Part shown: positions 35,987 to 40,080 of the stretch, in pieces | Numbering within the stretch: the first letter of the stretch is position 1 | Layout of the letters: the number at the start of each line of letters is the position of its first letter | Source of the DNA: Paenibacillus sp. W2I17 | Lineage (GTDB): Bacteria; Bacillota; Bacilli; Paenibacillales; Paenibacillaceae | Reading direction: 5' to 3' | Assembly (NCBI RefSeq): GCF_030815985.1 | Contig: NZ_JAUSXM010000001.1 | Coordinates: forward strand, 2,418,001 to 2,482,000 | Length of the DNA stretch: 64,000 bases | Notes under the pieces: model-generated | The model's input: the letters and a program-made list of their open reading frames with translations, nothing else | The model's database searches: none | Told to the model about the DNA's origin: nothing | Position numbers and translations under genes: made by a program

Positions 35987-36181
35987 ATGAAGAAACGCGG
36001 ACTTGAACAGAAAGACGTCGTTCAAATTACCGGCATAAATCGCAATACTGTAAAGGCGCTCGCGTTGAACGCCAACGCGCGGATAGATTTCCCAACGCTC
36101 AATACCTTGTGCGAAAAGTTGGACGTGCTGCCTGGCGATTTAATCGAATACATACCTAATACCGAGGAAAGTGCCGAGTAA
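35987..36181 (+). CDS. Small XRE-family (Cro/CI) HTH regulator, YozG-like
   Basis: The visible protein from ATG 35987 is 64 residues: KKRGLEQKDVVQITGINRNTVKAL forms the helix-turn-helix, and FPTLNTLCEKLDVLPGDLIEYIP is the characteristic tail of short YozG-like regulators. Homologous sequence seems to begin before this ATG (VISYLKSLDKIMKKRG), but the frame upstream contains no good start: the only earlier one is a TTG at 35858 inside the preceding terminator. There is no clear ribosome binding site. It may therefore be a start-less remnant or use the internal ATG. It is the left-most recognisable gene of the accessory island and ends in its own hairpin. Confidence 0.6.
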   Translation: MKKRGLEQKDVVQITGINRNTVKALALNANARIDFPTLNTLCEKLDVLPGDLIEYIPNTEESAE

Positions 36182-36232: not shown

Positions 36233-36293
36233 ATGTAGTGGGTTACATTTTCCCATTATAAGCTAATAAAATAACTATATTCGTTATTTAATA

Positions 36294-36322
36294 TTGTAAT
36301 GCGTTACATTTGGGGGTAAAAT
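36294..36322 (+). promoter_or_regulatory. Promoter of the antitoxin RNA
   Basis: TTGTAA (36294-36299), a 17-base spacer and TAAAAT (36317-36322) direct plus-strand transcription from about 36329 into the 3' end of the minus-strand toxin gene. Confidence 0.65.
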
Positions 36323-36328
36323 TGAATT

Positions 36329-36420
36329 ACCACTGTAAATCATAATTTACAGAGGACAAGAGCGGTACATCATCTAAGAAATAACCGCAGTCTTTGGAGA
36401 GAGGCGGTTATTTCTGCTTG
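36329..36420 (+). ncRNA. Candidate antisense antitoxin RNA of the type I toxin
   Basis: The predicted transcript starts near 36329, forms hairpin CTGTAAAT-CATA-ATTTACAG (36333-36340 with 36345-36352), and runs antisense through the toxin mRNA tail. It can end at the shared 12-bp hairpin AGAAATAACCGC / GCGGTTATTTCT (36377-36388 with 36404-36415). This convergent, 3'-overlapping design is that of B. subtilis BsrG/SR4-type systems. The T-tract after the hairpin is weak, so a longer form ending at the hairpin near 36617 is possible. No transcript evidence is available from sequence alone. Confidence 0.55.
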
Positions 36421-36535
36421 GTACGTATAATTAACACTATTAATGTCGCGAACGAAATCATAAGGATAAGTGTCTCATAGGTGGACATGCTACCACCTCC
36501 CCTCATATGAAGGTAGGCAAAGCCCGCTCTTGTCC
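36354..36535. repeat. 12-bp inverted repeat linking the 5' and 3' ends of the toxin mRNA
   Basis: GGACAAGAGCGG at 36354-36365 is the exact reverse complement of CCGCTCTTGTCC at 36524-36535. On the minus-strand toxin transcript these are the tail and the extreme 5' end. Such long-range closure keeps full-length mRNAs of several type I toxins untranslated. Confidence 0.85.
36408..36488 (-). CDS. Type I toxin, putative holin-like hydrophobic peptide (26 aa)
   Basis: The 26-residue peptide starts MSTYETLILMISFATL and ends in IIRTKQK: one membrane helix with a short charged tail. It fits the putative holin-like toxin family found in Bacillus and Paenibacillus type I toxin-antitoxin loci. ATG 36488 follows an excellent GGAGGTGG. 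A -10 box TATACT lies 55 bases upstream. The mRNA 5' end (GGACAAGAGCGG) is complementary to its own 3' tail, and an antisense promoter faces it. When translated it would insert in the membrane and depolarise or damage it; this activity is known for family members and inferred here. Confidence 0.8.
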   Translation of the reverse strand: MSTYETLILMISFATLIVLIIRTKQK

Positions 36536-36542
36536 ACTTTCC

Positions 36543-36548
36543 AGTATA
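36543..36548 (-). promoter_or_regulatory. -10 box of the type I toxin gene
   Basis: TATACT on the minus strand is preceded by a weak -35 (TTTCAT at 17 bases). Initiation 6-7 bases downstream would start the transcript at the 5' arm of the long-range repeat. Confidence 0.55.
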
Positions 36549-36795: not shown

Positions 36796-37583
36796 TTAAT
36801 GTGATTCAACAGGTGAGCCACTTATAGAAACATAATCTTGCCATTTAAATTTGTTAAAATGACCACTAGTATTTAAAAGATCATTTATCACTTGTTCTTT
36901 CTCCTCTGGATTTTCTCGGATATGAAAGTATAAAGCCAGTAAGTCTACTCCAGTGATTAAACAATGATCTCGATTATTACTATATGTCATCATCTGGTCA
37001 GGGAAAGGTTTTTCAATTCTTTCTTCTAAAGGAACATCTTTAAAAGCGTTTACTACTAAAATGCCTTTAGGCTTTATGTCCTTTGTCGCGAGATATTCGC
37101 TCACCCATTTTTCTAGTTGCGCAGCATGTTTTTCTGCAGCACTTTTAGTAACCCCTTTTACTTCTACTACTGCTACTTGACCTTTATATACTAATATAAG
37201 ATCGTCTCTTCCTGGTATACCCTCACTAACTTCAAAGCCGAGGTAACCAAAAACCCTACCCACTATATTTTCCAAGGGTTGACCTGTCCCAGCAAAGAGA
37301 ATTTTCAACTCCTCCAAGGATTTTAAATCTGAACCCAACTTCTCTATCTCAAATTCTAACATTTTCAATTCATCATTTTTCTTTGTTATTTCCTGTTTAA
37401 CTTTTTTTCCTCGGGCACCTCCGTTAAAAAACTCCACTCAGGAAGTGTTTTAATATAATCGTGATCAGGTTTGCGGATTTGACTATGTATACTCGCCAAG
37501 CATGTAGATAGAGCGTATATTTGATTTTTGTCAAGTATAATTAGTAGGGGGGTAATTTCTCTTTTATTTGAACAAAGATGAAG
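36796..37583 (-). pseudogene. PD-(D/E)XK nuclease-like gene, 5'-truncated and frameshifted
   Basis: The 213-codon frame from GTG 37437 to 36796 encodes a coiled-coil stretch and then a restriction-endonuclase-like core: GRDDLILVYKG and VVEVKG give the D-x-ExK pattern, and HAAQLEKWVSEY follows. GTG 37437 has no ribosome binding site. In the -1-related frame directly upstream, coding-like sequence (DKNQIYALSTCLASIHSQI, then PDHDYIKTLPEWSFLTEV) runs from about 37583 and joins smoothly at a run of seven A (37402-37408). So the real gene is longer and shifted by one base at this run. No ATG or GTG start exists in that upstream frame, which opens only 28 bases from the second toxin gene, so the 5' end seems lost. 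The alternative is programmed -1 frameshifting at A AAA AAG. Confidence 0.65.
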
Positions 37584-37613: not shown

Positions 37614-37724
37614 ATGAGTACATACGAGGCACTTGACGTCATGCTTAACTTTGGTACTTTTATTTTCGCAATGTTGGCCTTCATTACGTCAGTAATTTTC
37701 TTTTTACACGTAAAAAAGCGATAG
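37614..37724 (+). CDS. Second putative holin-like type I toxin peptide (36 aa)
   Basis: The 36-residue peptide MSTYEALDVMLNFGTFIFA .. FFLHVKKR has the same MSTYE start as the toxin at 36488, one long membrane helix and a basic tail. ATG 37614 has AAAGGTGAT six bases upstream. A -10-like TATAAT lies at 37536-37541, though its -35 is poor. A terminator follows at 37805-37837. It belongs to the putative holin-like toxin class. The facing antisense RNA is less clear here than at the first locus. Confidence 0.7.
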   Translation: MSTYEALDVMLNFGTFIFAMLAFITSVIFFLHVKKR

Positions 37725-37884: not shown

Positions 37885-38493
37885 TTACTTCGTCTCACCT
37901 ACGAGCTTAAACGTTCCGCCCGTCGACTCACCAATGTTATAATTTTGAACCGTGAGCTGTACGAAAGTAGAATCGTTCCAAGCTGGCGCGTTAGGAGATT
38001 TAGTATAGTATTCGCTCACTGCTTTGATGATTGCGTCAGATTTAGCGCGTAGCTCACGATCAGACAGTTCGTAGGCCCCCTTATTTTTGTACAATAATGA
38101 GAGAGCAGGTTGATTTTCGACGTCTATAACAACATCGCTTAAATTACCGTCATCGCCCCAACTGAACCTAATTTTATTTACAACGAAATCATCCGTAACA
38201 ATTCCGTCTTCGATATCGTGGGCCAACGCTGTTAAATAAGTTAGCTTGCGATATGTATCTTGCTCCTCATTAATAACTGCTTGCGCGTCTGCAGTTTTTT
38301 GTAATTCATCATTCTTTTTCGAGATTGACACAATCTGTTCGGAAAGTTTATCAGTCTTGCTTGATAGTTCTGAATTCTGAACAAATAAATAAATTGATGC
38401 GGCGACTGCTAAAGCCGAAATCCCCAACGCAACTGCAGATAATACATTTATGCGCTGCTTTGGCTTGCTTTCTGATAAAGTTAATTCGTCCAT
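37885..38493 (-). CDS. Membrane-anchored coiled-coil protein of unknown function
   Basis: This 202-residue protein has a short cytosolic head, one membrane helix at about residues 19-43 (VLSAVALGISALAVAASIYLF), and a coiled coil at about 45-75 (SSKTDKLSEQIVSISKKNDELQ). An extracytoplasmic mixed domain with several aromatic residues follows. I recognise no family. It sits between the second toxin and the broken integrase and is read in the same direction as the integrase, a typical place for cargo or phage-derived lysogenic genes. The start ATG 38493 is preceded by AGGGGAGAAGG, and a TATAAT -10 box lies at 38547-38552 on the minus strand. Confidence 0.75.
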   Translation of the reverse strand: MDELTLSESKPKQRINVLSAVALGISALAVAASIYLFVQNSELSSKTDKLSEQIVSISKKNDELQKTADAQAVINEEQDTYRKLTYLTALAHDIEDGIVTDDFVVNKIRFSWGDDGNLSDVVIDVENQPALSLLYKNKGAYELSDRELRAKSDAIIKAVSEYYTKSPNAPAWNDSTFVQLTVQNYNIGESTGGTFKLVGETK

Positions 38494-38647: not shown

Positions 38648-39686
38648 CTAAGACTGTCGGTTCGTCTTGCGCGGCTTTTCAAGTTTCCCAATAACAGCGT
38701 TCAGAGGGGAAAACTCGTCATGGTTCTTCTTCACGTTCTTATCGGACAAATGCGTATAGTGAGCGGTCATACGCCCGTCAGCGTGTCCGAGGATGTCCTG
38801 TAGATGGCGCTGTGATCCGCCTTCCTCTAAAAATAGCGTCGCCCCTGAGTGACGCAGTAAGTGCGGATACACGCGCTTCTCAATTCCGGCTCGATCCGCG
38901 TACTTCTTCAATTGATGGCGGAAGTGATTCGGAAGCAGGCGCTCACCGTAATTATTAAGGAATATATATTCACTTCCAAACTCCGTTGATTCGCGGATTA
39001 ACTCTTGCATCAGCTTAGCAGTTCGTTTTGTGATCGGTACAATTCGTGGCTTACACGTCTTGGTCACTTCCCGTCGTAAAGTTGCACAACATGCGGTAAA
39101 GTCTACGTCAGTCTTACGTAATGTTAACGCCTCGTCTACGCGTAACATCCCATCAATCAAGAGATTTATTACAACGAAATCTCGAAAGTCGCTGTACGTT
39201 GGTTTGGCGCTTTTAGAAGGTCGCTCATCTCCTCCGCGGTAAGTACCTCAATATCCTTCCCAATGTCCTGTACGTTCTTTAAATACGTAAACGAGTCTGC
39301 TTCAATTACTTCCTCTTCTTTTAAAAACTTAAACATCGTCTTCATATTCTTAATGCGCGTGTTAATTGATTCGGAAGAAGTCCCACAGTGCGAACAGATT
39401 CCGGAACTTTACAGTTATCGCTAAACCTCCGTTTTTCATCACGTAACCAAATTATGTAATCACGCCCTACCTCAACGTTGATATTCCGGATGTCACGAAT
39501 GATCTTACGCTCATCCAGAAATTCACAAAAGTAATTGTAATTCTGTACGTATGTCTTTAGCGCATTCTCCGCACGACCCTCGGATTTCTTCGCCTGGTAG
39601 TAATAATCAAACAGGTAGTCTAACGAATGTTGTAAGCGCGTTGATGTGCGCTCACTCTTAATTGTTCTTCCTTTACGTTTATCCAT
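38648..39686 (-). pseudogene. Tyrosine recombinase (phage/ICE integrase) broken by two frameshifts
   Basis: Start ATG 39686 has AAGGAGG nine bases upstream. The first frame encodes the N-terminal SAM-like core-binding domain (SLDYLFDYYYQAKKSEGRAE .. YCEFLDE-like). Near 39390 the reading must move to a second frame (TSSESINTRIKNMKTMFKFL, then DIEVLTAEEMSDLLKAPNQ). Near 39212 it must move again to the third, which carries the catalytic domain with RHSGATLF, LGHADGRMTAHY and the terminal Tyr. Each step equals loss of one base. Restored, the protein would be about 346 residues, normal for an integrase. It lies 51 bases from the 5'... side of the island next to tRNA-Ala, the usual site for such enzymes. 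Sequencing error at two sites is the main alternative to true decay. Confidence 0.85.
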
Positions 39687-39787
39687 TCCATACCGCCTCC
39701 TTCGATAATAAGTACGGTAAGAAAACGAGGGATTAGGCGCGCATATCTGCGAGTTGTCCACGTTAACAGTCAACGTCTAGACAAACG

Positions 39788-39809: not shown

Positions 39810-39823
39810 ATTCTCTAAGAGTA

Positions 39824-39896
39824 TGGAGCCTAGGGGGATCGAACCCCTGACCTCATCGCTGCCAGCGATGCGCTCTCCCAGCTGAGCTAAGGCCCC
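39824..39896 (-). tRNA. tRNA-Ala (anticodon GGC)
   Basis: The 73-nt cloverleaf starts GGGGCCT and ends AGGCTCCA, including the G3-U70 wobble pair that identifies alanine tRNAs. The D arm is GCTCAGCTGGGAGAGC, the anticodon stem CATCG/CGATG encloses loop CTGGCAG (anticodon GGC), and the T arm has GGTTCGATCC. CCA is not encoded. The broken integrase lies just beyond its 3' end, so this is the probable attachment site of the island. Confidence 0.98.
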
Positions 39897-40080
39897 AGGA
39901 TATGAAATAGATAACTTGTCCAACACTGCTACGTTCCACAGGCGACTCCTATATCATATAAAATCCAGCTTTCGCTGTCAATCACTTTTTAAGATCCAAA
40001 GTGATTGGAGAAGAACAACCGATTTCTCTGGTACACACGGACTGGAACTCCAGACTGCTCTTCTCCCTTTACCAACTTCA

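What the first reader, a model, noticed from the sequence alone, without database searches (positions are those of the whole stretch)
36294..36548. Complete type I toxin-antitoxin locus with 5'/3' mRNA closure and a facing antisense promoter
Seen in sequence: a 26-codon hydrophobic peptide gene (36488-36408, minus) with a strong GGAGGTGG site and TATACT -10; a 12-bp perfect inverted repeat that places the predicted mRNA 5' end (36524-36535) complementary to its own tail (36354-36365); a 12-bp hairpin at the gene's end; and a TTGTAA-N17-TAAAAT promoter (36294-36322) reading convergently into the tail. Known: BsrG/SR4-type and related type I toxins use exactly these parts, with long-range closure hiding the ribosome binding site until 3' trimming. 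Inferred: the plus-strand RNA is the antitoxin and competes for the same tail arm that closes the mRNA. The two activities would be coupled, because the antitoxin spans 36354-36365.
Basis: partly seen in the sequence, partly recalled or inferred. Interest (0 to 1): 0.72.

Follow-up and report, generated by a model that had tools for sequence, protein, structure and literature searches.

The report
Toxin-antitoxin locus with operator-controlled antitoxin
This is a small bacterial gene of the type I toxin-antitoxin kind whose messenger is predicted to fold end to end, and whose antidote-RNA promoter carries a conserved palindrome that looks like a protein-binding site, so some regulator, from a phage or from the host, may be able to switch the antidote off.

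Summary
Window 36408-36488(-) encodes a 26-aa Hol_Tox peptide (PF16935, E 2.5e-8). Three other genomes of the genus hold the same module. In all four, both 12-nt closure arms, both -10 boxes, the SD and the antisense -35 are invariant. Folding supports 5'/3' closure in 4 of 4 (mean arm pairing 0.97-0.99); other Hol_Tox loci keep closure with other arms.

Not noticed before: the antisense (antitoxin) promoter contains a 14-bp palindrome, TGTAATGCGTTACA. Of 76 distinct Hol_Tox loci in hand, 10 (two toxin families) carry it 93-109 nt after the stop; the other 66 show background only. It also occurs (up to 1 mismatch) 22-32 times on each of four 200-215-kb replicons, at least one with phage genes, once before the SPbeta lysogeny operon, and in host sugar-gene promoters, often beside LacI-type genes. 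Likeliest reading: a type I toxin-antitoxin whose antitoxin is repressible. Whether a phage, host or island protein binds is unresolved. Transcripts, toxicity and binding were not tested.

The parts
36408..36488 (-). Hol_Tox ORF, 26 aa, MSTYETLILMISFATLIVLIIRTKQK
   Evidence: Pfam PF16935 E 2.5e-8; codon changes in orthologs
36493..36500 (-). Shine-Dalgarno GGAGGTGG, locally sequestered (pairs with 36479-36484 in the predicted fold)
36543..36548 (-). toxin promoter -10 TATACT (weak -35); invariant in 4 of 4
36524..36535 (-). 5' closure arm GGACAAGAGCGG at the predicted mRNA 5' end
   Evidence: arm pairing probability mean 0.97-0.99
36354..36365 (-). 3' closure arm CCGCTCTTGTCC in the mRNA tail; the same bases lie within the predicted antisense RNA
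36377..36415 (.). 12-bp symmetric hairpin at the stop codon; candidate terminator of the antisense RNA and stem in the mRNA
36329..36418 (+). predicted antisense (antitoxin) RNA, about 90 nt: 5' stem-loop, single-stranded GGACAAGAGCGG segment, terminal hairpin
   Evidence: fold z -4.8; transcript not observed
36294..36322 (+). antisense promoter TTGTAA-N17-TAAAAT, both boxes invariant in 4 of 4
36295..36308 (.). palindrome TGTAATGCGTTACA overlapping the antisense -35 and spacer (one mismatch in the G053 copy)
   Evidence: 36302-36311 invariant at 9 of 10 positions
36234..36247 (.). imperfect second copy TGTAGTGGGTTACA; not kept as a full site in the orthologs
36266..36292 (-). AT-rich hairpin followed by a T-rich stretch, candidate 3' end of the toxin mRNA (weak, fold z -1.7)
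35987..36181 (+). HTH_26 Cro/CI-type small regulator (64 aa), neighbour; candidate but unproven reader of the palindrome
   Evidence: Pfam E 8.1e-15 on the longer ORF; PHROG transcriptional regulator E 5.8e-7; similar genes within about 3 kb of 5 other palindrome-bearing TA loci

Best explanation
A chromosomal-island type I toxin-antitoxin locus. The minus-strand mRNA (about 36536 to 36330 or 36262) encodes a one-helix membrane peptide of the Hol_Tox kind. The mRNA 5' end pairs with its own tail, which most likely shields both ends from nucleases and presents a fixed structure, while local hairpins keep the ribosome site shut. The plus-strand RNA from about 36329 is the antitoxin: it pairs with the 3' half of the mRNA, including the closing arm (to which it offers the same 12-nt sequence as the mRNA 5' end), and probably leads to RNase III cleavage. 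The antitoxin promoter carries a palindromic operator, so a DNA-binding repressor can switch the antitoxin off and let the toxin be made. Shown: sequence, conservation, predicted folds, site statistics. Inferred: transcripts, membrane insertion, toxicity, antitoxin action, end protection, and that the palindrome is bound and represses.
For: Hol_Tox membership. Module conserved in 4 genomes, outside it 2/32 and 9/40 invariant. Closure; with other arms in other Hol_Tox loci, 22 of 32 representatives had at most 2 of 200 shuffles as good. Palindrome at the tail of 10 of 76 distinct Hol_Tox loci at 0-1 mismatch, none of the other 66 better than 4, upstream control none better than 3; two toxin families with different arms and promoter geometry. 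Palindrome at up to 1 mismatch 32 and 30 times on two related 206-215-kb replicons (control 1 each), 24 and 22 times on two Bacillus 204-212-kb plasmids (control 0). On the P. urinalis replicon a TATAAT-like box ends 3-7 nt before the palindrome at 14 of 32 sites (11 of the 14 exact ones), against 21 of 256 shifted control places.
Against: No expression data. The antisense promoter boxes are weak by themselves. Over 75 genus genomes the 17-mer at up to 1 mismatch is not enriched in number (26 sites against 22 for the reversed control). In family a the left palindrome half coincides with the -35 box, so part of its conservation needs no regulator. The second palindrome of the window is not kept in the orthologs. 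The candidate toxin mRNA terminator is weak. 8 of 32 Hol_Tox representatives show no closure signal, including the second Hol_Tox of this window. The weak ComI (competence inhibitor) match of that second peptide warns that a Hol_Tox peptide need not be a toxin (below cut-off).
Confidence: 0.6

Rival explanations
1. The palindrome is read by a host LacI-family sugar regulator, so the antitoxin answers to beta-glucoside or related sugars rather than to a phage.
For: Exact TGTAAYGCRTTACA occurs at 58 places in 29 of 75 genomes (control 0). Of 16 host places read (of 40 that are neither at a TA locus nor on G065:C23), 11 lie next to a GH4-type gene and 9 have a LacI-type gene on the other side; all 16 directly follow a TTGA.. 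box (types judged by eye, one LacI and one GH4 protein tested, the GH4 one below the model's cut-off). The window's own genome has TGTAACCCGTTACA between a LacI-like and a GH1-like gene, after TTGACG (types by eye).
Against: In the own genome sites at up to 1 mismatch number 5 against 8 in the control, and the TA copy is the only exact one; most of the host sites read are TGTAATGCATTACA, the TA sites are TGTAATGCGTTACATTT or one mismatch from it. The geometry of family b (boxes by eye) resembles the phage-replicon promoters, not the host ones.
Confidence: 0.3
2. The palindrome is read by a repressor of phage-plasmids (such as the one with an MrpR-like protein); entry of such an element silences the antitoxin and triggers the toxin.
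For: (22-32 sites per replicon, often just after a -10-like box); in family b the antisense promoter has a -10-like box, 5 nt, palindrome in L092, L102, L159 (by eye). The P. urinalis replicon encodes an MrpR homolog (PF22822 E 1.8e-23; PDB MrpR/YopR chains E about 1e-27). None of the 7 genus genomes with palindrome-bearing TA loci has that homolog at E 0.001, 12 of 75 do. SPbeta has the exact palindrome, annotated as such, before yopM.
Against: The binder is unknown: 9 of the 10 SPbeta promoters reported as MrpR targets have no such palindrome within 350 nt (best 4-6 mismatches), so SPBRE is a different motif. Absence of the homolog in 7 of 7 genomes has a chance of about 0.28 (own arithmetic from 12 of 75). 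Host sites exist too. In G065 the homolog lies on another contig than the sites.
Confidence: 0.25
3. The palindrome is the operator of the small HTH_26 regulators carried by the same islands.
For: HTH_26 genes within about 3 kb of palindrome-bearing TA loci in the window, G013, G026, G063, L129 and L159, 6 of 9 surroundings scanned.
Against: No convincing hit in the stretches around the G067, G056 and G053 loci (the G067 contig ends about 1 kb beyond the TA, so that island is cut). The six 19-kb island stretches hold only the TA copy apart from one 2-mismatch site in L179. No HTH_26 hit on G065:C23, which has 30 sites.
Confidence: 0.15
4. The peptide is a small membrane protein with another role (for example ComI-like competence inhibition) and the antisense RNA tunes it; no toxicity.
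For: The neighbouring Hol_Tox peptide 37614-37724 matches the ComI model weakly (E 1.7e-5, 24.5 bits against a cut-off of 55).
Against: The 26-aa peptide itself has no NCBIfam hit; the convergent antisense architecture is that of type I toxins.
Confidence: 0.15

Closest known systems
BsrG/SR4, TxpA/RatA, BsrE/SR5 (B. subtilis type I TA)
   Same: Small hydrophobic toxin, antisense RNA overlapping the mRNA 3' part, ribosome site sequestered by a few local base pairs, prophage/island location (PMC6562991, sections 2.1-2.9 read).
   Different: 26-aa peptide, predicted antisense RNA of about 90 nt, exact 12-nt end closure, and a palindromic operator-like site on the antitoxin promoter, which those sections do not describe; for bsrG, bsrE and yonT they describe mainly post-transcriptional control.
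Hol_Tox family (PF16935) loci of the same genus
   Same: Peptide family; closure is common: in 15 of the 18 non-orthologous representatives with a strong duplex, the tail side of the printed duplex begins 41-51 nt after the stop.
   Different: Only 10 of 76 distinct loci in hand carry the palindrome.
par/Fst-RNAII of Enterococcus (recalled)
   Same: Convergent RNAs meeting at a symmetric hairpin.
   Different: par uses direct repeats, giving complementary 5' ends; here the repeats are inverted, so both RNAs carry the same 12 nt.
hok/Sok and AapA1 (long-range pairing recalled; processing also in PMC6562991)
   Same: Long-range end-to-end pairing of the toxin mRNA.
   Different: No sign that 3' removal opens the ribosome site.
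SPbeta lysogeny control (MrpR/SPBRE, yopM-R operon)
   Same: Exact palindrome TTGTAATGCATTACAA before yopM; a phage repressor site at a type I toxin promoter (spbT/yonT) is reported (PMC10516654, passages).
   Different: There the reported site is SPBRE and lies at the toxin promoter; here another palindrome lies at the antitoxin promoter.

Membership tests
Hol_Tox (PF16935) | profile score over the curated cut-off | tested here: met
   34.1 bits against 23.3
type I toxin-antitoxin | short hydrophobic peptide with strong SD | tested here: met
type I toxin-antitoxin | antisense RNA gene overlapping the toxin mRNA | tested here: inconclusive
   promoter boxes invariant in 4 of 4, hairpin arms largely kept; no transcript data
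type I toxin-antitoxin | peptide toxic, RNA neutralises | not testable with these tools
   needs an induction assay
BsrG/TxpA-like | local sequestration of the SD | tested here: met
   SD unpaired 0.03-0.20 in predicted folds
BsrG/TxpA-like | antitoxin-induced change around the SD (BsrG), RNase III cleavage | not testable with these tools
   needs structure probing and RNase III mutants
hok/AapA1-type 3'-processing control | removal of the 3' arm opens the ribosome site | tested here: not met
   predicted SD occlusion not lost in truncated RNA in 4 of 4
par/Fst | direct repeats at the two RNA 5' ends (recalled) | tested here: not met
   the shared 12-mer is an inverted repeat
SPbeta SPBRE / MrpR site | same motif as at the reported MrpR targets | tested here: not met
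   palindrome before yopM only, 4-6 mismatches at the other 9

The most novel reading that the evidence does not exclude
The antitoxin promoter copies the operator of temperate phage-plasmids: when such an element enters and makes its repressor to establish lysogeny, that repressor silences the antitoxin RNA and the resident island kills or arrests the cell. The toxin-antitoxin locus would be an alarm that senses the phage's own immunity protein.
Probability: 0.2. Interest if true: 0.85.

Novelty: new variant of a known kind. Interest (0 to 1): 0.45.

Why it matters
Chromosomal and island type I toxins rarely have a known trigger. A conserved operator-like site on the antitoxin promoter gives a direct, testable trigger.

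Tried and rejected
Closure as SD switch: rejected. Palindrome as SPBRE: rejected. Reader sought as a phage integrase-type protein with PF00589: no hit in 3 plasmid records; the MrpR homolog was found by reading translations and then confirmed. HTH_26 as common reader: not found at all loci. Rfam at gathering thresholds: only a tRNA in the window. Phage collection search with the locus DNA: one chance-level 26-nt hit. PADLOC on five window proteins: only weak hits to two neighbours, none to the two Hol_Tox peptides or the HTH. The cross-pairing control is flawed (two loci with two toxins share an id and were overwritten, and members of one arm family serve as each other's control); I use instead. 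Paper searches showed, in the listings and passages seen, no palindromic operator on a type I antitoxin promoter; the library lacks most subscription papers. Passages only, not used as support: PMC8270828, PMC12373285, PMC9700832, PMC8612738. Not examined: 24 of the 40 exact palindrome places that lie neither at a TA locus nor on G065:C23; the Hol_Tox matches beyond the fetched loci.

Full report
What is there. Window 36408-36488(-) is a 26-aa peptide frame with a strong SD. It scores 34.1 bits against Pfam Hol_Tox (cut-off 23.3); NCBIfam has no hit for it. The 12-nt inverted repeat, the 12-bp hairpin at the stop and the antisense boxes are present at the stated places. Hol_Tox is common in the genus: 64 of 75 genomes at E 0.01 or better, 61 over the cut-off.

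Conservation. A DNA search of the 75 genus genomes found three further copies of the module: G067 97%, G056 82%, G053 80%. In 394 family genomes 9 matched at E 0.001: these four, and five that match only over the 3' half of the toxin gene and the hairpin after it. An exact search for the two arms in the public species collection gave two records, P. taichungensis DSM 19942 and P. xylanexedens DSM 21292, whose contig lengths equal those of G056:C66 and G067:C41; the window's own genome and the G053 copy were not returned, so that search is not complete. The viral collection gave none. Invariant positions among the four: arms 12/12 and 12/12, toxin -10 6/6, antisense -35 with left palindrome half 8/8, antisense -10 6/6, stretch upstream of the toxin promoter 24/32; outside the module 2/32 and 9/40. 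Synonymous against other codon changes are 2 and 0, 11 and 2, 10 and 5 for the three orthologs.

Closure. The predicted mRNA 36536-36330 folds at -71.6 kcal/mol against -47.7 for shuffles (0 of 200 as good), with the 12 nt at its start paired to the tail. In the four orthologs the arm pairing probability averages 0.97-0.99 with each of three 3' ends tried. Because the arms do not vary among the four, they give no covariation; the support for pairing as such comes from other Hol_Tox loci, where other sequences pair at similar places. Of 32 representatives chosen from 61 loci, 22 (four of them the orthologs here) had at most 2 of 200 shuffles with as strong a 5'-to-tail duplex, 2 had 4 and 6, and 8 had 39 to 175. 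The neighbour Hol_Tox of this window is among the 8. Representatives are related to each other, so 22 is not 22 independent events.

What closure does. The SD is mostly paired with the arm present (mean unpaired 0.06-0.20) and with the tail arm left out (0.03-0.16) in the four orthologs; local hairpins do this. The review of B. subtilis systems says that RBSs there are held in four or five GC pairs and assigns processing control to Gram-negative systems (PMC6562991, sections 2.1-2.9 read). I therefore read closure as end protection and a structural platform, and the antitoxin as acting by duplex formation and probably RNase III; both are inference. The predicted antisense RNA has a 5' stem, an open stretch with GGACAAGAGCGG and a strong terminal hairpin. 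It offers the tail the same sequence as the mRNA 5' end, so strand exchange is possible; that step is inference too.

The palindrome. TGTAATGCGTTACA covers the antisense -35 and part of the spacer (36295-36308). Positions 36302-36311, its right half with TTT and not needed for a -35 box, are kept at 9 of 10, while the remaining spacer 36312-36316 is kept at 2 of 5. Of 76 distinct Hol_Tox loci in hand, 10 have the palindrome at 0-1 mismatch, all 93-109 nt after the stop; 66 have nothing better than 4 mismatches, and upstream control stretches nothing better than 3. Three of the ten (L129, L159, L190) were fetched only with patterns that contain the palindrome; the other seven also came from peptide searches, although the peptide was taken from a palindrome-bearing locus. 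The ten fall in two toxin families. In family a (this locus) the palindrome overlaps the -35. In family b (MTVYE[ST]LSLMI.., arms GCAAG[AG]CATAGC/GCTATGTCTTGC) it follows an antisense -10-like box by 5 nt (L092, L102, L159) or 10 nt (L095, L129) (sequences; boxes assigned by eye). Two more distant family-b-like loci, L193 and L194, lack it.

Where else the palindrome is. Over 75 genomes the 17-mer with up to 1 mismatch is not enriched in number (26 sites against 22 for the reversed pattern), but 10 of the 26 are on one 206-kb contig, G065:C23, and 7 are at Hol_Tox tails. G065:C23 has the length of IMG/VR contig UViG_2609460327_000001. It holds 30 sites at up to 1 mismatch (13 exact), control 1; the P. 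urinalis plasmid NZ_CP118109.1 (214,846 bp, annotated terminase, major capsid protein, ParM), which shares many of the flanking sequences, holds 32 (14 exact), control 1. A B. halotolerans and a B. licheniformis plasmid of 204 and 212 kb hold 24 and 22, control 0; I saw only short annotated parts of these two and did not establish that they are phages. On the P. urinalis replicon a TATAAT-like box ends 3-7 nt before the palindrome at 14 of 32 sites, 11 of 14 exact ones, against 21 of 256 places shifted by 60-150 nt; this is where a repressor would cover the start of transcription. The same replicon encodes a 348-aa protein with both MrpR domains (PF22822 1.8e-23, PF22823 2.7e-14) that matches solved MrpR/YopR chains. 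MrpR is the SPbeta master repressor (PMC10516654, passages). In SPbeta the exact palindrome lies before yopM, first gene of the operon that ends with yopR (mrpR), and is annotated as a palindrome; nine of the ten reported MrpR target promoters lack it.

Results against a phage-only reading. Exact TGTAAYGCRTTACA occurs at 58 places in 29 of 75 genomes, reversed control 0: 13 on G065:C23, 5 at TA loci, 40 elsewhere. I read 16 of those 40: 11 lie next to a GH4-type gene, 3 at a Cof-type HAD phosphatase gene, 1 before a PTS component, 1 near a transporter gene; 9 of the 16 have a LacI-type gene on the other side; all 16 directly follow a TTGA.. box, TTGACA in 13 (types by eye, five proteins tested). 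In the window's own genome only the TA copy is exact, and sites at up to 1 mismatch are 5 against 8 in the control, yet one of them (L223) lies between a LacI-like and a GH1-like gene after TTGACG. A host sugar regulator is thus at least as credible a reader as a phage repressor. Island HTH_26 genes occur within about 3 kb of 6 of the 9 palindrome-bearing TA loci whose surroundings I scanned (window, G013, G026, G063, L129, L159; not seen at G067, whose contig is cut about 1 kb beyond the TA, nor at G056 and G053), so they are a third candidate. No MrpR homolog at E 0.001 was found in the 7 genus genomes with palindrome-bearing TA loci, against 12 of 75 with one; by my arithmetic this has a chance of about 0.28 and is weak.

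Setting. The locus appears to lie in a variable island at a tRNA-Ala gene: integrase pieces in several frames lie between it and the tRNA, and in G067 a 3' piece of the same tRNA stands about 0.4 kb from the antisense promoter (by eye). L071, L095 and L102 also have integrase genes near. Two Hol_Tox peptides lie 1.1 kb apart in the window.

Verdict. The locus is a well-supported Hol_Tox type I-like toxin-antitoxin candidate, ordinary in kind. The closure is well supported at sequence level but is not the ribosome-site switch. The new point is a conserved operator-like palindrome on the antitoxin promoter of two toxin families; its reader is open.

Noticed in passing
window 37614-37724(+): Second Hol_Tox peptide (36 aa, Pfam E 9.6e-11), opposite strand, 1.1 kb away, weak ComI and PepG1 model matches; no closure signal.
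   Followed up: partly
window 38648-39773(-): Tyrosine integrase sequence spread over several frames next to tRNA-Ala 39823-39897; marks the island.
   Followed up: partly
L034 1080-1123: 3' piece of the tRNA-Ala near the TA locus in G067, looks like an attachment-site remnant (by eye).
   Followed up: no
window 36796-37437(-): 213-aa protein without a Pfam match; only a weak Cas4 hit in PADLOC (E 0.013).
   Followed up: no
window 37885-38493(-) and L092 1951-2559: 202-aa protein with a 38% identical relative beside a family-b TA locus in G013.
   Followed up: partly
L185:18692-19738 (NZ_CP118109.1): MrpR homolog, annotated as hypothetical, on a Paenibacillus phage-like plasmid with 32 palindrome sites; G065 has a 75% identical copy on contig C4.
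   Followed up: partly
L203:32857-32872 (SPbeta NC_001884.1): Exact palindrome TTGTAATGCATTACAA before the yopM lysogeny operon, absent from nine other reported MrpR targets; reader unknown.
   Followed up: partly
L205-L220: Host promoters with TTGACA or similar directly followed by TGTAATGCATTACA or a close form, 9 of 16 beside a LacI-type gene: an apparent host regulon.
   Followed up: partly
L122 1554-1600: In another genus the hairpin after the toxin stop is kept with changed bases (ATAGACCGC..GCGGTCTAT), a sign of paired changes (by eye).
   Followed up: no
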